Virus record (IMG/VR): IMGVR_UViG_3300033999_000356
Location: 1-37,552 of that record
DNA from: a virus
Strand: one strand, 5' to 3'
DNA: 37,552 nt
Both the position numbers and the translations under genes were made by a program. The notes beneath the pieces were generated by a model that was not told the origin of the DNA, did not search any database, and worked only from the letters and a program-made list of their open reading frames with translations. Each line of letters starts with the position of its first letter. The first letter of the stretch is position 1. Shown here piece by piece: positions 9,390 through 20,800 of the stretch.

Positions 9390-9730
9390 TGGGCGAGAAA
9401 TCTCGACGCAAGGGCTGCCGCGGCGAACGTGAGGCGGCGGCCGAGATCGCGCGGCTGTTTCGGGTCGAGGCCCGCAGGGGCAGGCAGTACTGTGGCGACC
9501 CGGAGGCCCCCGACATCCGCACGGCCATCGCCGGAGTCCACTTCGAGGTCAAACGCTGCGAGGCCCTGCGGCTCTATGCGGCACTGGAACAGGCCACGGC
9601 GGACGCCTGCCAGAACGTGCCGCTGGTGCTCCATCGCGCCAACGGGAGACCGTGGGTGGCCATCGTGTGGTTGGAGGACCTGCCGCGTTTGGCTGTGCAG
9701 CTTTATCTCACTCTCGCCCAACAGCAATAG
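9389..9730 (+). CDS. Holliday-junction-resolvase-like PD-(D/E)XK nuclease
   Basis: The 113-aa protein reads SRRKGCRGEREAAAEIARLF (Glu in the first helix), then RRGRQYCGDPEAPDIRTA (the metal-binding Asp) and GVHFEVKRCEALRLYAALEQ (Glu-x-Lys). The end has LVLHRANGRPWVAIVW. The E..D..ExK order is that of small phage resolvase/endonuclease proteins resembling Hjc. It would resolve branched DNA produced by replication and recombination. It overlaps the upstream gene by TGATG. It ends in TAG (9728-9730), and the phosphoesterase ATG at 9737 is in the same frame, so readthrough would fuse the two. No strong ribosome binding site lies between them. Confidence 0.78.
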   Translation: MGEKSRRKGCRGEREAAAEIARLFRVEARRGRQYCGDPEAPDIRTAIAGVHFEVKRCEALRLYAALEQATADACQNVPLVLHRANGRPWVAIVWLEDLPRLAVQLYLTLAQQQ

Positions 9731-9736
9731 GCCGAG

Positions 9737-10504
9737 ATGGCAAAGCGCGGAAGCAAGACACTGCTGGCCTTCGGCGACGTGCATGTGCCCTACCACCACC
9801 CGGTCGCGCTGGAGGTCTTATGCCGGGCCGCGGAGCGCATCCGGCCGGACGTGATCGTCTGCCTGGGCGACCTGTTGGATTGCGGCCAGTTCAGTACGCA
9901 TCCACCGACATGGGGTACACCACAGACTGAATACCTCGACGACCTGAATACGGCCTGTAGGCTGCTGGATCGCCTCCAGGCGACTTGCCGCCGCCTGGTG
10001 CTCTTGGAGGGCAACCACGAGTATCGGCTAGATCGCTGGGCAGCCGCCACAGCCGAAGGCCGTGACGCGTATTCGATGCTCGCCCCACGCCTGCGCCTGA
10101 CGCACGGCCGCCAGTGCCTGTACATCCCCTACGGATCGGCCAACGGCCGCTATCCGCACTATCGGGTCAATGCGCGGATCGTCGCCGTGCATGGCTGGTC
10201 CTATGCCCGGCACGCGACCAAGAACCACCTGACCATGAGCCAAGGCCGCAGCGTCATCCACGGACACACGCATCGCGCCGATGCGGCCATCGTGCAGAAC
10301 ATCTGGTCGCCAGGGCGGATCGTCGAGGCCCGCAGCGCGGGCTGTCTCTGCCGGCTGGTGCCGCTTTACGGCACGGGCCGGCCCGTCGAATGGGTCCACG
10401 CCTTCATCCTGGGCTACCTGGGACGGCGGAGCGACACGCTCTACACCGTGCCGATCTTGGGGCGTCGGTGCATCCTGCCAGACGGTCCGGAGGTGCAGGC
10501 ATGA
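9737..10504 (+). CDS. Calcineurin-like metallophosphoesterase
   Basis: The 255-aa protein shows all metallophosphoesterase motifs: GDVHVP (about 13-18), CLGDLLD (about 42-48), LEGNHE (about 93-98), AVHGWS (about 153-158) and GHTHR (about 174-178). These residues bind two metal ions and hydrolyse phosphoesters. The substrate is not visible; phage members inside replication operons are usually suspected of acting on nucleic acid ends or nucleotides. It lies between a resolvase-like nuclease and a helicase, an SbcD-like context, but there is no SbcC partner. Its stop overlaps the helicase start (ATGA 10501-10504). Confidence 0.88.
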   Translation: MAKRGSKTLLAFGDVHVPYHHPVALEVLCRAAERIRPDVIVCLGDLLDCGQFSTHPPTWGTPQTEYLDDLNTACRLLDRLQATCRRLVLLEGNHEYRLDRWAAATAEGRDAYSMLAPRLRLTHGRQCLYIPYGSANGRYPHYRVNARIVAVHGWSYARHATKNHLTMSQGRSVIHGHTHRADAAIVQNIWSPGRIVEARSAGCLCRLVPLYGTGRPVEWVHAFILGYLGRRSDTLYTVPILGRRCILPDGPEVQA

Positions 10505-15865: not shown

Positions 15866-17221
15866 ATGCAGATTGAGATGTGGGACATTGCGAGGGTCAA
15901 GGAATACGAGCACAATCCGCGTTGCAACGACGGACCTCCCGTCGAGGCGGTGGCCGCCTCCATCCGGCAGTTCGGCTTCCGAGTGCCGGTCATCGTGGAA
16001 GGGGATGGGGTGCTGGTCGCAGGCCACACGCGACTGAAGGCGGCCCGAAAACTCGGCTTGTCGCAGATACCGGTCATCCGGGTCAACGACCTGACCCCCG
16101 AGCAGGTCAAGGCCTATCGCATCGCCGACAACAAGACGGCCGAGCTGGCCGAGTGGAACTACGAGCTATTGCCCATCGAGCTGGGCGAGCTGGCGAGGAT
16201 GAACTACGACCTGGGCCTGTTGGGGTTCTCGGACGAAGAGCTGGCCAAGCTCTTGGACCCCGGCGTGAAGGAGGGACTCACCGATCCCGACGAGGTGCCC
16301 GAGCCGCCCGACGAGCCGGTCACGCGGCCCGGCGATCTCTGGATTCTCGGAAACCACCGGCTGCTCTGTGGCGACGCGGGCAAGACCGAGGATGTGGACC
16401 GGCTGCTGGATGGCAACCCGGTGCATCTGGTGAATACGGACCCGCCCTACAACGTGCGGGTGGAACCCCGCTCGAACAACGCCATCGCGGCCGGCTTGAG
16501 CTCGTATCCTTCAGCCGAAGAGCTGCACGGTGGGCGCAAGCGGCGTGGGCACCACCAGGCGATGGACGTGGCGCGGCACCCCGAGAAGGCCCAGGCCACG
16601 CACCGCAAGCTGCGGGCCAAGGATCGGCCCCTGGAGAACGACTTCGTCTCGGATGAGGAGTTCAACCGGCTCTTGCACGCCTGGTTCGGCCAGATGGCCC
16701 GGGTGCTCTTGCCCGGGCATGCGGCCTACATCTGGGGCGGCTATGCCAACTGCGCCAACTACCCAGCGGTGCTCAAAGCGGTGGGCCTGTACTTCTCGCA
16801 GGCCATCATCTGGGTGAAAGAGCACCCGGTTCTCACGCGCAAGGATTTCATGGGCAACCATGAGTGGTGCTTCTACTGCTGGCGCGAAGGGGCGGCCCAC
16901 CGGTTCTTCGGCCCCAACAACGCGGTGGACGTGTGGAGCGTCAAGAAGGTCAACCCCAACAAGATGCTCCATCTGACCGAGAAGCCGGTCGAGCTGGCGC
17001 TGCGGGCGATCCAGTATTCGTCGCTTGCCGGCGAGAACGTGCTGGATCTGTTCGGCGGCAGCGGCAGCACGCTGATCGCGGCCGAGCAGACCGGCCGCAA
17101 GGCGTACCTGATGGAGCTCGACCCGGCCTATTGCGATGTGATCACCCAGCGCTACGAGCAGTTCACCGGCAAGAAGGCCCAGCGGATTGCAGATGGCCAC
17201 GAGCAAGAATTGCTGCCTTAG
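15866..17221 (+). CDS. ParB-like domain fused to beta-class DNA (adenine-N6 or cytosine-N4) methyltransferase
   Basis: ATG 15866 follows AAGGAG (15854-15859). Residues 1-110 form a ParB/Srx-like domain (ASIRQFGFRVPVIVEGDGVL then AGHTRLKAARKLGLSQIPVI). The methyltransferase domain follows: motif IV is NTDPPYNV (about 190-197), the variable part covers about 205-340, and motif I is DLFGGSGST (about 392-400). Motif IV before motif I defines the beta group; DPPY indicates amino-methylation of adenine or cytosine. No restriction endonuclease is adjacent, so it is probably a solitary phage methyltransferase that protects or marks phage DNA. The TAG stop (17219-17221) is odd: seven codons further a TGA at 17240-17242 would overlap the next gene by the ATGA typical of this operon. 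Confidence 0.92.
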   Translation: MQIEMWDIARVKEYEHNPRCNDGPPVEAVAASIRQFGFRVPVIVEGDGVLVAGHTRLKAARKLGLSQIPVIRVNDLTPEQVKAYRIADNKTAELAEWNYELLPIELGELARMNYDLGLLGFSDEELAKLLDPGVKEGLTDPDEVPEPPDEPVTRPGDLWILGNHRLLCGDAGKTEDVDRLLDGNPVHLVNTDPPYNVRVEPRSNNAIAAGLSSYPSAEELHGGRKRRGHHQAMDVARHPEKAQATHRKLRAKDRPLENDFVSDEEFNRLLHAWFGQMARVLLPGHAAYIWGGYANCANYPAVLKAVGLYFSQAIIWVKEHPVLTRKDFMGNHEWCFYCWREGAAHRFFGPNNAVDVWSVKKVNPNKMLHLTEKPVELALRAIQYSSLAGENVLDLFGGSGSTLIAAEQTGRKAYLMELDPAYCDVITQRYEQFTGKKAQRIADGHEQELLP

Positions 17222-17238: not shown

Positions 17239-17424
17239 ATGAGTCTCGATAAAGCTATCCGCCACAAGAAGGAGCGCCGGCGACACTATCGTGACAGCAA
17301 GCGCTTTGACGCGACGTGCCGCAATCACGGCACGTGTGACTGGTGTCGTCGCAACCGGCTTCACTCAACTGAGCGAGGCCGACAAGCTGCGACTGAGCAA
17401 ATTCGGGAGTGGGAGGCACGATGA
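17239..17424 (+). CDS. Small Cys-containing basic protein, 61 aa
   Basis: The product is short and strongly basic (MSLDKAIRHKKERRRHYRDS), with one Cys cluster TCRNHGTCDWCRRNRLH that could hold a zinc ion. I remember very similar 50-60-aa proteins (starting MSLDKAI-HGKE) as conserved hypothetical genes of planctomycete prophages. The stop overlaps the ATG of the DUF1937 gene (17421-17424). Nucleic-acid binding is plausible; the role is unknown. Confidence 0.7.
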   Translation: MSLDKAIRHKKERRRHYRDSKRFDATCRNHGTCDWCRRNRLHSTERGRQAATEQIREWEAR

Positions 17425-17774
17425 TCTAGCTTGCATCGCCCTATTCGCATCCCGACCCGGCTGTTCGACAGGAGCGTTACGAGGCCGTTTGCCAGGCCGC
17501 GGCCGAGCTGATCTCTCGGGGGCACATCGTGTTCTCGCCTGTGGCTCACAGCCACACCATTGCCACCTACGGCCTGCCTGGGGATTGGGAGTTCTGGCAG
17601 CGAACCGACAGGTGGTTTATCCGACACTGCCAGCGGCTGGTGGTGCTCACATTACCTGGCTGGCGGGAAAGCCAGGGCGTGGCAGCGGAGATGGAGATCG
17701 CTCGCGGTTTGGGTAAGCCGGTTGTGCTATTGGCCCCCGTTTCGCACCCGTGGCCCTGTGCGGCCACAGTATAG
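17421..17774 (+). pseudogene. DUF1937 protein (deoxyribosyltransferase-like fold) with TAG at codon 3
   Basis: Read from ATG 17421, which overlaps the upstream stop by ATGA, the frame is MI-stop-LASPYSHPDPAVRQER and continues open to 17774 with ISRGHIVFSPVAHSHTIATY, WEFWQRTDRWFIRHCQRLVV and GWRESQGVAAEMEIARGLGK. This is the complete DUF1937 pattern; family members begin M-I-Y-L-A-S-P-Y-S, so TAG (17427-17429) stands where Tyr is expected. DUF1937 belongs to the nucleoside 2-deoxyribosyltransferase-like superfamily, and the product could act on nucleosides. Without suppression only a fragment from a later GTG (17529) could be made. Nonsense mutation, sequencing error or amber readthrough are the options. 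Confidence 0.8.
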
Positions 17775-17831
17775 GGCCGTGGGAAGAACGGCCGGGCCAA
17801 AAGAACTCGCCACAGGGCCTAGCACAGGGCC
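17752..17831. terminator. Inverted repeats at the convergent gene junction
   Basis: GGCCCTGTG (17752-17760) can pair with CACAGGGCC at 17811-17819 or with a second copy at 17823-17831. A small hairpin CTGTG-CGGC-CACAG and GGCCGT/ACGGCC lie between. The two converging genes end here (stops at 17774 and 17819), so a bidirectional terminator without T-runs is likely. Confidence 0.5.
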
Positions 17832-18508
17832 GTTTCCGGCGGAAGCGAGACGCACTGTTGCCTGAGGAGGCCGGATTGACTGAAGTAAACCGCAGCGAAG
17901 TTGTCGTTGACCGGGCGAGGGGAGGCGGGGAGTTCGCGTGGCAGACTGGCGAAGTAGTGCCCCCGGCGGGTCGTAGCGACCGCCAGCGGCCGGCCCCGGC
18001 GGACGACGAGCATTCGCAGCGGGTTGGCCCACAGGCCCAGGATGGCCAGGCTCCCCTCGGCCTGCCTGACCGCCCAACACGCCCGCTGCAGGATCGAGCC
18101 GCCGGATTGCATCATCAAGTGGCAAAAGACCTCGCTGTCGCAGTCGCTGCGCAAGCGGAAGCGGTAGCGGCGGACCAGCGCGTCGTAGTTGCGAACCACA
18201 CCGTTGTGCACCAGCCATCCGCGGCCGGCGAAGTGGGGATGGTTGTTGCGATTTTCCTGGGGATCGCCGCGGGTTGCCCAACGGCAGTGGCCGATCATGG
18301 CTTGACAACCGCGACACAATTCCAGGTCGTCCAGGTCGTCGCTGGCCGCCCCGGGGCGTTTGAACGCGTGCAGTTGGCCGTGGGCGTCGATCCAGACCAG
18401 GCCGAAGGCGTGGCGGCCGCGGGTTTCGGTCTCCGCGGCGATCCGCCGCAGGCGGGCCAGCTCCGGCCCGCGTCCATCGGTGCTCAGGAATCCGAAGATA
18501 CCGCACAT
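17819..18508 (-). CDS. Class II glutamine amidotransferase (stand-alone GATase domain)
   Basis: The 229-aa protein starts MCGIFGFLST, so Cys2 becomes the N-terminal nucleophile after Met removal. HCRWATRG (74-81), RNNHPH (87-92), LVHNGVV (99-105) and SDCDSEV (121-127) are the glutamine-binding and oxyanion residues of Ntn-type amidotransferases. It frees ammonia from glutamine. There is no attached synthetase domain, so ammonia must go to a partner; the amidoligase encoded 400 bp upstream on the same strand is the obvious one. Stand-alone GAT-II domains next to amidoligases are known from comparative genomics of peptide and cell-wall modification clusters. The start is nine bases after, and in frame with, the TAG of the 96-aa gene. 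Confidence 0.9.
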   Translation of the reverse strand: MCGIFGFLSTDGRGPELARLRRIAAETETRGRHAFGLVWIDAHGQLHAFKRPGAASDDLDDLELCRGCQAMIGHCRWATRGDPQENRNNHPHFAGRGWLVHNGVVRNYDALVRRYRFRLRSDCDSEVFCHLMMQSGGSILQRACWAVRQAEGSLAILGLWANPLRMLVVRRGRPLAVATTRRGHYFASLPRELPASPRPVNDNFAAVYFSQSGLLRQQCVSLPPETALC

Positions 18509-18517
18509 GGTCGCCCC

Positions 18518-18808
18518 CTACTCCGCGTCGCCGGATTGCAGGCGGATCGCGTGGGATTCCAAGGTGTCTGCTACCGCAGCGAGCAAGGCCGCGTCGCGGC
18601 GGGCGGTGGCGGCAAGCTCGCGCTGGCGGATGACGGCCGAGTCGCCCAGCCGGGCATCGGCCATCTCGAACAGGCGTTCGGCCAGGCGGGCGATTTCTGC
18701 GGCCCAATCGCCCGGCGTGACATCCGCGCGGATGCCACGGGCCAGGATGGCGGCCCACTCGGTGGCGGTCAGGCGCTGGTCGGCAGCGAGTCGCTTCATG
18801 TGCGTCAT
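18518..18808 (-). CDS. Hypothetical 96-aa helical protein between amidoligase and amidotransferase
   Basis: The product is almost entirely alpha-helical and Ala-rich: RLTATEWAAILARGIRADVT, then WAAEIARLAERLFEMADARL and RDAALLAAVADTLESHAIRL. It has no Cys, membrane segment or signal peptide. A ribosome binding site (AAAGGA on the minus strand) precedes its ATG. It ends with TAG, nine bases before and in frame with the amidotransferase ATG, so the two are co-translated and would fuse on readthrough. A small scaffold or subunit joining the two enzymes is possible; no family was recognised. Confidence 0.65.
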   Translation of the reverse strand: MTHMKRLAADQRLTATEWAAILARGIRADVTPGDWAAEIARLAERLFEMADARLGDSAVIRQRELAATARRDAALLAAVADTLESHAIRLQSGDAE

Positions 18809-18904
18809 GGTTGCGATCCTTTCGTTGCTGGTGTTGGGGTTGCCTCGTCAGGCGGCCGGCACCCATCCGGCCACGACGCCCGCGTCCGTGCGTGCGTTTC
18901 GGCT

Positions 18905-19756
18905 TCAGAGCTGCGCGTCGTACTTGCGGGCCAGCCGGCGGAACTCGGCCTTGATCTGGTCCTGCGGGATGGCGTCGGAAATCCATCCGTACTGCTTGCC
19001 GCCGTGGATGCGGGCGTAGCCTGCGCCCCAGGCCAGGTAGCCCAAGAGGCGTTCCGTCTCGCTTTGGCCCGGGCCCGATTTTTTCCAGCCCCCGCTGGGG
19101 GCCTTGGGGTTCCACGTCGGCATCCGCTTGGCCGCCAGGGCCCGCTCGACCAAGCCCAGGCAGACCTGAATCCAGCCGGCGACCTTGGTGGGGTTGAGCG
19201 AGCCGGAGAAGACGCGGAACTCGACCGTGTCCTTGGTTCCGCGGGCGAGATTGGTCAGGTTCAAGGCGTGGTAGCGGTCACGGTCCAAGGCGGGCTTGGC
19301 CGACTTGTCGCTTCCGTACTTCCGCACCCCGCCGCAGTACCTGCCCCGCTCGCGGTTCTTGGTGCCGGTGATCGCGTAGAGGCCCTTTTCCAGGTAGGCG
19401 ACGATGGTGACCAGCCGGGCCAGGGCCTCGCTCGGCCAATCGCGATTCCAGCCGACATGGACGTGGACGCCGCAGGAGGCGTTGACCCGGTGGCCCTTCG
19501 ATTCCAGCGTCCGCAGGACCTCGATCACCTGGCGGATGCCTTCTTCCCCGCGGAGGACGGGGCTGACGATTTCGCACTTGTGGCCGCCGTGCCCATTGTC
19601 GATCGAGCCGTCGGCTTCGGCCTTCCAGCCGGCGGGCAGGTACGGGACCTGGATTCCGTGGCGGTAGGGGCCGATCCGCAGGCCGTGCTGGCGCACGGCG
19701 CTATCCGGGGCGATGGTTTCGATCTCGATTCCGAAGGTCAGGTCGCTTGCGTTCAT
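18905..19756 (-). CDS. Amidoligase (carboxylate-amine ligase, Amidoligase_2 family)
   Basis: The 283-aa protein begins with TFGIEIET (7-14), the acidic metal/ATP strand of the family. CEIVSPVLRGEEGIRQVIEV (61-80), SCGVHVHVGWN (94-104) and DTVEFRVFSGSLNP (about 176-190) complete the pattern of the glutamine-synthetase/gamma-glutamyl-cysteine-ligase-like fold used by predicted COOH-NH2 ligases. Such an enzyme would join a carboxylate to an amine or ammonia with ATP. An amidotransferase encoded downstream on the same strand probably provides ammonia. Substrates could be peptides, cell wall or capsid components, or small molecules; none can be deduced. The ATG at 19756 has a GAGGGG site upstream, and an operator-like repeat plus a conserved 92-nt leader lie just before it. 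Confidence 0.85.
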   Translation of the reverse strand: MNASDLTFGIEIETIAPDSAVRQHGLRIGPYRHGIQVPYLPAGWKAEADGSIDNGHGGHKCEIVSPVLRGEEGIRQVIEVLRTLESKGHRVNASCGVHVHVGWNRDWPSEALARLVTIVAYLEKGLYAITGTKNRERGRYCGGVRKYGSDKSAKPALDRDRYHALNLTNLARGTKDTVEFRVFSGSLNPTKVAGWIQVCLGLVERALAAKRMPTWNPKAPSGGWKKSGPGQSETERLLGYLAWGAGYARIHGGKQYGWISDAIPQDQIKAEFRRLARKYDAQL

Positions 19757-19773
19757 GGCGTTCCCCTCGATGG

Positions 19774-19797
19774 TATAATGTTCATGCGTACATTACA
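19774..19797 (-). promoter_or_regulatory. AT-rich inverted repeat, operator/promoter candidate for the amidoligase gene
   Basis: TATAATGT (19774-19781) and ACATTACA (19790-19797) form an 8-base inverted repeat with one mismatch around an 8-base centre. It lies 18-41 bases upstream of the amidoligase ATG on the minus strand, where a promoter would be, in otherwise GC-rich DNA. Binding by the HARE-HTH-like protein or a host regulator is possible. Confidence 0.5.
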
Positions 19798-19888
19798 CAG
19801 GAGCCATGAACGGCCAAAAACATCAAGCGGATTTCCGCCCCGGCGGGCCGGATTTTTCGGAATACTTTTGGGGCCCGGCGTAGCACCG
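19797..19888 (-). repeat. Conserved 92-nt leader element, copy 1
   Basis: On the minus strand, GCTACGCC, AAGTATTCCGA, AATCCGCTTGATG and CATGGCTCCTGT occur in this order with the same spacing as in copy 2 (20483-20574). Both copies precede a minus-strand gene. Both also encode a short frame reading RCYA--QKYSE-S----G--SA and ending in TGA, so a leader peptide is possible. Confidence 0.7.
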
Positions 19889-20000
19889 CCTAACGCTTGT
19901 GGCCGGTTGGGGAGTAACGCTTTCGGCCGGCCGGCCAGAAGATGGGGGCTCACGGCGGGCGTCGTTGTTGCCAGGCTAGGGTGCGGGTATGGCGCTGGGT

Positions 20001-20030
20001 TGGCCACGTGGGCCCCACAGTGGCCACGTG
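20001..20030. promoter_or_regulatory. Direct repeat TGGCCACGTG x2, 20-bp period
   Basis: The 10-mer TGGCCACGTG is repeated at 20001 and 20021, two helical turns apart, and each contains the palindrome CACGTG. Such spacing allows two protein dimers to bind on one face. It may be an operator for the minus-strand cassette; it could also be a chance feature. Confidence 0.35.
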
Positions 20031-20045
20031 TGGCGTCGCAGGCGG

Positions 20046-20099
20046 GGCCTTGGGCTTGTGGGCCAAGGCCAAGAGAAAACCCCGGCGGTGGGCCCGGGG
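20046..20099 (-). terminator. Tandem hairpins ending the HARE-HTH gene
   Basis: On the minus strand CCCCGG-N8-CCGGGG (20099-20080) is followed by TTTTCTCTT, a rho-independent terminator 23 bases after the stop. A second perfect hairpin GGCCTTGG/CCAAGGCC (20046-20053, 20063-20070) follows. Confidence 0.7.
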
Positions 20100-20122
20100 A
20101 TAGCCGACCGGCGCGCTTGGGT

Positions 20123-20434
20123 TTACGCCCGGGCGAACTTGCCCCGCTCGACTTTGCGGAAGCGGGACTGGGGGCCTTTGGCCGCGATTTCCCGGGCGAT
20201 GGCTGCGTAGAGCGTCCGATCGGGCGTCTTGCCGCCGGGCGAACGCCAGTAGCCCTTGGACTCGGCCGCCGCGACGATCTGCTTGGCCGTCATCGGCTGG
20301 CCTGCTTCTTCCAGCACCCGGGCAGCGGCGTCCCAGCCGCCGTGGCGGCTTACGCCGTCGATCCGCACCTGGACCAGCCGATTCGACACCTTCGCGGTGT
20401 AGACGCCGCCGACCTGCACTTCGCTTCGCTTCAT
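20123..20434 (-). CDS. HARE-HTH-like winged-helix protein
   Basis: The 103-aa protein starts at ATG 20434 behind GGAGGT. After a short beta stretch ([20 protein letters not shown]) come [20 protein letters not shown], then [35 protein letters not shown] and [10 protein letters not shown], the HARE-HTH (RpoE-delta/HB1/ASXL-type) winged-helix pattern. This domain links DNA-binding or chromatin proteins with nucleic-acid enzymes. In a phage cassette it is likely a transcription regulator, possibly of the amidoligase gene or of the divergent late genes. It is preceded by leader copy 2 and ends before two terminators. Confidence 0.8.
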
Positions 20435-20482
20435 GGCACACCTCCGATGGTGATGGAGCAACGGTTCGTGACACACCATCCA

Positions 20483-20574
20483 ACAGGAGCCATGTTTCGG
20501 CCAGCGCATCAAGCGGATTCTTCGCCCCATCGGATGGAATTCTCGGAATACTTCTGCGCGGAGGCGTAGCACCG
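20483..20574 (-). repeat. Conserved 92-nt leader element, copy 2
   Basis: This is the second copy of the element at 19797-19888, with the same length and the same conserved blocks (AAGTATTCCGA, AATCCGCTTGATG, CATGGCTCCTGT on the minus strand). It lies between the divergent HARE-HTH gene and the 20576 gene, so it may serve either direction. Confidence 0.7.
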
Positions 20575-20575
20575 G

Positions 20576-20800
20576 ATGACGGACACCATCGCCCAAGGAC
20601 GGCAAGCCAGCCCCCTGAGCCCCCAGGCCTTACGGCTGGAGGACTTGGCCCGGATTCTGTCGGCCGCCGGGCCGCGGCCGATCACCGTGGAATTGCTCCA
20701 AGCGGACATCGACGCCGGGGCCCCGACCAACGCCGACGGTACGCTGAACCTGGTGCATTACGTGGCTTGGGTGATAAAGGAACTTGCCGGTGGCCATTGA
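20576..20800 (+). CDS. Small conserved protein preceding the terminase
   Basis: The 74-aa protein has a helical region [19 protein letters not shown] followed by [20 protein letters not shown] and [12 protein letters not shown]. The last part reads like a short HTH or a helical hairpin. It overlaps the terminase start by 11 bases. Position and size fit a small-terminase-like or packaging accessory protein, but no clear DNA-binding motif can be named. I recall similar proteins before terminase genes in planctomycete prophages. Confidence 0.65.

What the first reader, a model, noticed from the sequence alone, without database searches (positions are those of the whole stretch)
17819..20574. Phage-borne amidoligase plus stand-alone glutamine amidotransferase cassette on the minus strand
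All other genes here are on the plus strand. Four minus-strand genes (HARE-HTH-like protein, amidoligase, 96-aa helical protein, class II amidotransferase with intact Cys2 and His/Asn/Asp residues) form an inserted cargo block with its own terminators and operator-like sites. Together they could make an amide bond using glutamine-derived ammonia. Amidoligase/GAT-II neighbourhoods are known from comparative genomics, but the substrate, and why a prophage carries them, is open: capsid or cell-wall modification, a superinfection barrier, or a signalling metabolite are possible.
Basis: partly seen in the sequence, partly recalled or inferred. Interest (0 to 1): 0.75.

Follow-up and report, generated by a model that had tools for sequence, protein, structure and literature searches.

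The report
Phage amide-making genes split by ribozyme
A phage of planctomycete bacteria carries, on the strand opposite to its other genes, an enzyme pair that probably forms an amide bond, apparently switched on from its own repeated promoter-like element and cut into separate messages by a self-cleaving RNA; the enzyme pair is of a known kind, while this way of expressing it appears not to have been described.

Summary
In detail: four minus-strand genes lie between a ParB-methyltransferase gene and the terminase gene: HARE-HTH, amidoligase (AL), a 96-aa protein and a class II glutamine amidotransferase (GAT). AL and GAT have intact catalytic residues and confident glutamine-synthetase-like and GlmS-glutaminase-like folds. 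The pairing is real: of 77 phage loci found through GAT, 62 have AL directly upstream, 35 of them in phages without a related terminase. AL+GAT in phages is, however, already published. It is not a foreign insertion: dozens of planctomycete (pro)phages carry the block at the same place, and a sister lineage keeps AL with no GAT in its records.

The unexpected part is how the block is expressed. HARE and AL each follow a copy of one promoter-like element (phased A-tracts, GCTTGA-N14-CATGGCTCMTGT). Relatives carry up to 11 copies; all 162 scored sites are on the cargo strand, typically about 62 nt before a start codon, and almost none occur in host genomes. A type II hammerhead ribozyme starts directly after the AL gene and precedes the 96-aa gene; relatives have it at the same kind of gene boundary, often before HARE. 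I read the block as individually promoted, ribozyme-separated cargo genes. Substrate and benefit remain open.

The parts
20483..20554 (-). Promoter-like element 1, upstream of HARE: A/T-rich tracts, GCTTGA (20509-20514), 14 nt, CATGGCTCCTGT (20483-20494)
   Evidence: Exact match of GCTTGA-N14-CATGGCTCMTGT at 20483-20514 minus; PWM score 29 against a shuffled maximum of -20.7
20123..20434 (-). HARE-HTH protein, 103 aa: short N-terminal part plus C-terminal HARE-HTH; the most constant gene of the block
   Evidence: PF05066 51.7 bits; present in nearly all related blocks, including those without AL
20080..20099 (-). Terminator-like hairpin after HARE
   Evidence: Consensus scan, 6 GC pairs followed by TTTTCTCTTG
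19797..19868 (-). Promoter-like element 2, upstream of AL: same architecture and spacing as element 1
   Evidence: Exact pattern at 19797-19828 minus; PWM score 38
19777..19794 (.). Operator-like palindrome (AATGTACGCATGAACATT on the minus strand) between element 2 and the AL start codon
   Evidence: Seen in the sequence; similar palindromes at the same place upstream of AL in relatives; pattern occurs at this one place only in the window
18905..19756 (-). Amidoligase (AL), 283 aa
   Evidence: PF12224 91.6 bits; model pLDDT 94.1, nearest solved folds YbdK/GCS2 and glutamine synthetase
18834..18904 (-). Type II hammerhead ribozyme in the AL-p96 gap; predicted cleavage after base 18875 (...GCGUC|GUGG...)
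   Evidence: Rfam RF02276 38.0 bits, gathering 37, only Rfam hit in the window; same position in close relatives at 39-44 bits
18518..18808 (-). 96-aa protein (p96), unknown; first cistron after the ribozyme
   Evidence: No Pfam, PHROG or PADLOC family; homologues in L015, L016, L019 and beside the second AL of L006
17819..18508 (-). Stand-alone class II glutamine amidotransferase (GAT), 229 aa, 9 nt after the p96 stop codon
   Evidence: PF13522 52 bits; model pLDDT 95.7, nearest fold GlmS glutaminase domain 1xff; catalytic residues aligned
15866..17221 (+). Flanking ParB-like + N6/N4 DNA methyltransferase gene, the conserved neighbour beyond GAT
   Evidence: PF01555 94.5 bits; same neighbour in relatives; start codon
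20784..23054 (+). Flanking terminase large subunit, the conserved neighbour beyond HARE (with the 74-aa gene 20576-20800)
   Evidence: PF20454 91.7 bits; same neighbour in relatives

Best explanation
The region is a resident accessory ('moron'-type) locus of a lineage of temperate planctomycete phages, not a one-off insertion. Its genes run against the phage's main transcription and are expressed from a phage-private promoter element repeated in front of individual cargo genes. In the window, element 1 drives HARE, which ends at a hairpin; element 2 drives AL-ribozyme-p96-GAT. The type II hammerhead cuts that transcript 30 nt after the AL stop codon. The AL message would then end in the ribozyme's stem III hairpin, and p96-GAT would start with a 5'-OH and the stem I hairpin, so the two messages can differ in stability and level. 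AL (glutamine-synthetase/YbdK fold) uses ATP to activate a carboxylate and amidates or aminoacylates it. GAT, with a GlmS-type glutaminase site, most likely feeds it ammonia from glutamine but is optional, since sister phages use AL alone. Shown by sequence: gene content, synteny, motif statistics, ribozyme conservation, fold assignment. Inferred: promoter activity, cleavage in vivo, enzyme chemistry. Guess: the product modifies a host molecule (for example cell-wall peptide or a small metabolite) to the benefit of lysogen or infection.
For: Same block between the MTase and terminase genes in dozens of phage contigs and planctomycete MAGs. The HARE/promoter block also lies at three places in one planctomycete chromosome (7.0-Mb contig), where the locus with all flanks in view also carries a ribozyme, and at one place in a second chromosome (6.4-Mb contig). 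Promoter element: 162 sites in 47 loci, all on the AL strand, none opposite; GCTTGA to CATGG spacing constant although a variable gap was allowed; core to start codon median 62 nt, interquartile 59-65, 149 of 162 followed by a Shine-Dalgarno-like site and an ORF; 10 matches in 392 planctomycete genomes, reversed-pattern control 0. Ribozyme: RF02276 over threshold in 30 of 55 records, 36 at E<=0.001; a descriptor scan gave 158 hits, many repeats of the same DNA, against 0.5 expected, starting about 5 nt after the preceding stop codon in many of them and ending about 30-42 nt before the next start; stems covary. AL-GAT: 62 of 77. AL is the most conserved gene of the region: 77% identity to L007, where TerL has 49% and GAT 51%. 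Folds.
Against: The window's ribozyme scores only just above threshold (38.0 against 37) with one A.G mismatch in stem III, and its region does not fold better than shuffles by free energy alone. The promoter-like element has no recognisable -10 box, so it could be an operator or other DNA site. Its score in the window (29 and 38) is well below that in sister phages (up to 107). Several group A relatives (L022, L025, L029) lack the element before AL. No expression or biochemical data exist. GAT could hydrolyse gamma-glutamyl bonds like EgtC (also a fold match) instead of supplying ammonia. R80 replaces the histidine found in relatives and in GlmS.
Confidence: 0.6

Rival explanations
1. GAT is not an ammonia donor but a gamma-glutamyl hydrolase (EgtC- or GGCT-like): AL makes a gamma-glutamyl conjugate that protects or carries an amine, and GAT later removes the glutamate.
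For: AL (GCS2/YbdK fold) is a typical gamma-glutamyl ligase fold. In other phages AL is paired with gamma-glutamyl cyclotransferase instead of, or beside, GAT. EgtC is among the GAT fold matches. A lineage with AL but no GAT exists, as expected if GAT is a trimming enzyme.
Against: The closest relative by sequence and fold is the GlmS glutaminase domain, with glutamine-binding residues conserved. Glutaminase domains are a common ammonia source for ligases (general knowledge).
Confidence: 0.3
2. The repeated element is not a promoter but a recombination or regulator-binding site that lets cargo genes be gained, lost and shuffled as cassettes.
For: One copy per cargo gene, same orientation, variable gene content between phages, up to 11 copies.
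Against: Tight distance to start codons (59-76 nt for most) and phased A-tracts upstream fit a promoter better. No attC-like long palindrome was seen.
Confidence: 0.2
3. Auxiliary nitrogen metabolism: AL and GAT help the host assimilate nitrogen, as proposed for the planctomycete phage ZRK32.
For: A published planctomycete phage carries GAT, amidoligase, glutathione synthase and GGCT and is released on nitrate or ammonium (PMC10945688).
Against: That phage has a LUZ24-like long GAT and divergent AL, a different module. A single ligase plus glutaminase makes no net nitrogen assimilation. The published effect was not traced to these genes.
Confidence: 0.1
4. The ribozyme in the window is a decayed, inactive remnant and AL-p96-GAT is an ordinary operon.
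For: Score near threshold, one stem III mismatch.
Against: All catalytic core bases, the GUC cleavage site and a 4-base loop I/tail complementarity (UGGG-CCCA) are kept; close relatives have the ribozyme at the same place with better stems.
Confidence: 0.2

Closest known systems
Phage amidoligase + class II amidotransferase neighbourhoods (Iyer et al. 2009, cited through PMC10580990; LUZ24-like phages PMC3890496; OM43 phages PMC10580990; Arthrobacter phages Wheelbite, Ottawa)
   Same: AL directly upstream of, or close to, a glutamine amidotransferase gene on the same strand
   Different: Those clusters often add ATP-grasp, COOH-NH2 ligase or GGCT genes; here AL-(p96)-GAT stands beside HARE-HTH, on the strand opposite to the phage's other genes, with private promoter-like elements and a ribozyme; Rfam found no hammerhead in the six annotated phage regions tested
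Poriferisphaera phage ZRK32 (PMC10945688)
   Same: Planctomycete phage with GAT and amidoligase genes
   Different: LUZ24-like long GAT (532 aa) and divergent AL with GGCT close by; no relative of this AL was found there with the single-sequence search
Type II hammerhead ribozymes of prophages (Perreault et al. 2011, PMC3088659; Rfam RF02276)
   Same: Ribozymes flanking single genes or short gene blocks in prophages, proposed to cut long transcripts into gene-length mRNAs
   Different: Here a systematic association with AL, GAT and HARE genes across one phage lineage and several others; no held paper mentions hammerhead ribozyme and amidoligase together
T4-type promoter-stem-loop regulatory cassettes; start-associated sequences of mycobacteriophages (from memory, a lead only)
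   Same: One promoter or motif copy before each small accessory gene
   Different: Different sequence; here combined with hammerhead ribozymes and confined to one minus-strand locus; not compared by any tool
YbdK/GCS2 carboxylate-amine ligases, PafA/Dop (glutamine-synthetase fold)
   Same: Fold, and a conserved ExE pair on the first strand
   Different: No detectable sequence similarity to any solved chain; shorter (283 aa); substrate unknown

Membership tests
Amidoligase_2 (PF12224) | Profile match above curated cut-off | tested here: met
   91.6 bits against 22
Amidoligase_2 (PF12224) | Glutamine-synthetase-like fold with conserved acidic and His/Arg residues | tested here: met
   Model pLDDT 94.1; matches to 1tt4, 1r8g, glutamine synthetases; E11, E13, E62, H98, R161, N166, E179, R181 invariant in 34 sequences
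Amidoligase_2 (PF12224) | ATP-dependent amide bond formation | not testable with these tools
   Needs purified enzyme and substrate
Class II (Ntn) glutamine amidotransferase | N-terminal catalytic Cys and glutamine-binding residues | tested here: met
   Cys2, R76, W77, T79, N102, G103, D124 align with GlmS; one substitution, R80 for the GlmS histidine
Class II (Ntn) glutamine amidotransferase | Glutaminase rather than other gamma-glutamyl hydrolase activity | not testable with these tools
   GlmS closest, but EgtC also matches the fold
Phage AL-GAT module | AL and GAT adjacent in unrelated phages | tested here: met
   62 of 77 GAT-anchored loci; 35 without a related terminase
Phage AL-GAT module | Obligate partnership | tested here: not met
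   12 sister records with AL carry no GAT
Hammerhead ribozyme type II (RF02276) | Score above gathering threshold | tested here: met
   38.0 bits against 37; relatives up to 62.7 bits
Hammerhead ribozyme type II (RF02276) | Invariant core (CUGANGA, GAAA, NUH cleavage site), closed stems I and III, open stem II | tested here: met
   All present in the window copy, with one A.G mismatch in stem III; covariation across the distinct sequences
Hammerhead ribozyme type II (RF02276) | Self-cleavage | not testable with these tools
   Needs an in vitro transcription assay
Phage moron (independently expressed cargo gene) | Own promoter and terminator, dispensable, opposite to or outside the main operons | tested here: inconclusive
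   Promoter-like element and one terminator-like hairpin found; AL and GAT absent from some relatives; activity untested

The most novel reading that the evidence does not exclude
Planctomycete phages own a dedicated expression system for accessory genes: a phage-private promoter class repeated before each cargo gene, recognised by a phage or lysogeny factor (perhaps the ever-present HARE-HTH protein), combined with type II hammerhead ribozymes that split cargo cistrons. AL and GAT are payloads whose product acts on the host, and ribozyme cleavage sets the ratio of ligase to amidotransferase.
Probability: 0.3. Interest if true: 0.78.

Novelty: new variant of a known kind. Interest (0 to 1): 0.6.

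Why it matters
AL-GAT modules occur in many phages, and the held papers describe no demonstrated function for them. Here the module sits in a phage lineage with integrated prophages in assembled planctomycete chromosomes, so deletion and metabolomics become possible. The repeated promoter-like element gives a simple test of when the cargo is expressed and an easy marker for finding further cargo genes. The ribozymes at gene boundaries offer a natural system for the open question of what hammerhead ribozymes do in prophages.

Tried and rejected
Short peptide on the plus strand upstream of AL and HARE (MNGQKHQADFRPGGPDFSEYFWGPA and [25 protein letters not shown]): looked like a possible peptide substrate, but it is the reverse strand of the shared promoter leader, conservation continues past the stop codon, and the start codon is lost in L016; rejected as coding. 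Sigma-70 promoters: none found. Anti-phage defence family: no PADLOC match for any of the four block genes. AL-GAT fusion proteins: none seen. Hammerhead near AL/GAT of LUZ24, Arthrobacter, Bacillus, Christensenellales and Porphyromonas phages: none. AL against solved structures by sequence: no match. MFE folding of the ribozyme region: not informative.
Full report
The record. The window is a complete IMG/VR virus record of 37,552 bases. It encodes a serine-recombinase integrase, helicase, primase/polymerase, exonuclease, Sak4-like annealing protein, ParB-methyltransferase, terminase, portal, major head/protease and tail tape-measure proteins on the plus strand: a tailed temperate phage. Relatives at the same locus lie in MAGs of Thermoguttaceae, Planctomycetaceae, Gemmataceae, Phycisphaerales and Planctomycetia and in two planctomycete chromosomes of 6.4 and 7.0 Mb, so the host is very probably a planctomycete.

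The genes. The four minus-strand ORFs are real. AL matches Amidoligase_2 with 91.6 bits; its model (pLDDT 94.1) resembles YbdK, a predicted glutathione synthase, glutamine synthetases and PafA/Dop. GAT matches GATase_6; its model (pLDDT 95.7) resembles the GlmS glutaminase domain, and Cys2, Arg76, Trp77, Thr79, Asn102, Gly103 and Asp124 align with GlmS active-site positions; only R80 differs from the GlmS and family histidine. The 96-aa protein has no family and is limited to the closest relatives plus a copy beside the second AL of L006.

Is AL-GAT conserved? Yes. Scanning viral contigs with a GAT alignment and testing each locus with profile HMMs gave 77 loci with at least 1 kb upstream; 62 have AL immediately upstream on the same strand, median gap 48 nt, and 35 of these lie in loci without a terminase related to the window's. 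Closely related contigs are counted separately, so this is not a count of independent events, and a terminase may lie outside a locus. In the window's own lineage AL is the slowest-evolving gene of the region (for example L007: AL 77%, MTase 69%, GAT 51%, TerL 49%); lower synonymous divergence in the closest relatives suggests some exchange of AL between phages as well. A sister lineage (group B, AL 41-47% identical, same place next to TerL) has no GAT in 12 whole records. Other phages pair AL with gamma-glutamyl cyclotransferase. GAT is therefore a frequent but optional partner.

Not an insertion. The block lies between the ParB-methyltransferase gene and the p74-terminase genes in dozens of contigs and in prophages of planctomycete chromosomes that carry HARE but no detected AL. 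HARE is the constant gene; AL is frequent; GAT and other small genes vary.

A private promoter-like element. Upstream of HARE and AL the window has the same leader. In group B the element recurs before many genes of the block, up to 11 times in 12 kb. A matrix from 134 distinct sites shows A-tracts spaced about ten bases apart, then GCTTGAtG, then CATGGCTCaTGTGtG. The distance between the two conserved boxes is constant although a variable gap was allowed. All 162 scored sites lie on the AL strand and none on the other; the highest score in shuffled sequence was -20.7 against a threshold of 22. The matrix was trained on sites of the same loci, so the score is partly circular; strand, spacing and position are not. 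The core lies a median of 62 nt before the start codon of the next gene. In whole phage records the exact pattern occurs only in this block, and in 392 planctomycete genomes it occurs 10 times in 4 genomes with 0 for the reversed pattern, so it is not a general host promoter. I infer a promoter from position and A-tracts; the -10 region is not recognisable, and the proteins that read it are unknown.

A hammerhead ribozyme between cistrons. Rfam finds one RNA in the window: a type II hammerhead at 18834-18904 minus (38.0 bits, threshold 37), filling most of the 96-nt gap between AL and p96 and starting right after the AL stop codon. L015, L016 and L019 have it at the same place with better scores. 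In other relatives it precedes HARE, and in distant AL-GAT phages it follows AL or precedes GAT. A descriptor independent of Rfam found 158 hits (many are repeats of the same DNA in overlapping loci) against 0.5 in shuffles; they mostly begin close behind the preceding stop codon and end about 30-42 nt before the next start. Stem pairs covary (for example stem I pair 3: 94% paired against 46% after shuffling partners); the finder required most stem pairs, so this is supportive and not independent. Type II hammerheads flanking prophage genes, with in vitro and in vivo cleavage for some, are known (PMC3088659). The link to AL, GAT and HARE was not found in the held literature.

How it probably works. 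Element 1 makes a HARE transcript that ends at the hairpin 20080-20099. Element 2 makes AL-ribozyme-p96-GAT. Cleavage after base 18875 leaves AL mRNA ending in the stem III hairpin and p96-GAT mRNA with a 5'-OH end and the stem I hairpin, which would uncouple their decay. AL activates an acid with ATP; GAT would supply ammonia. The substrate cannot be read from the sequence. Cell-wall change against superinfection has been suggested for other phages with the pair (quoted in PMC10580990); nothing here tests it.

Known and new. AL+GAT in phages, including a planctomycete phage (PMC10945688), is known, so the enzyme pair is a new member of a known kind. The combination of a repeated phage-private promoter-like element with hammerhead ribozymes at cargo gene boundaries is, as far as the held literature shows, a new variant.

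Noticed in passing
window 17421-17774, plus strand: A frame similar to a gene of relatives (MIYLASPY... in L006 at 9566-9931) reads MI*LASPYSH..., with a TAG at codon 3 and an otherwise open frame: a nonsense mutation, sequencing error or later start; its end lies 44 nt from the GAT stop codon, convergent.
   Followed up: partly
L006 4977-5834, 6345-6701, 8001-8849; L031 6375-7748 and 7998-8876: Two contigs carry two different amidoligases in one block; in L006 a p96-like gene lies between the two, and in L031 the two AL genes run in opposite directions.
   Followed up: partly
Group B loci L094-L142: Besides AL and HARE, the repeated element precedes several small conserved protein families without known function (for example ...QEIREAYYK..., MTIDQLIGLLEEYRD..., ...RDLLQHIELQLDRM...), candidate host-interaction genes.
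   Followed up: partly
L006 1314-4616: The terminase large subunit ORF is 1,101 aa with an extra segment (LALDTPLVTPFGWTTMGEVQVGDW...VCDGDHLWTVY) inserted after MAMPRGSGK, which looks like an intein in the ATPase motif.
   Followed up: no
L039 8001-8144: AL is cut to about its first 40 aa and followed directly by the opposite-strand methyltransferase gene: apparently a deletion that removed the rest of the block.
   Followed up: no
G387 (L337-L339): One planctomycete chromosome holds three loci of this phage type, with HARE and the promoter element but no AL detected.
   Followed up: partly
window 19777-19794: A palindrome similar to TGTWCGYRYGWACA just upstream of AL recurs in relatives that lack the promoter element (L025, L029, L030), suggesting a second regulator of AL.
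   Followed up: partly
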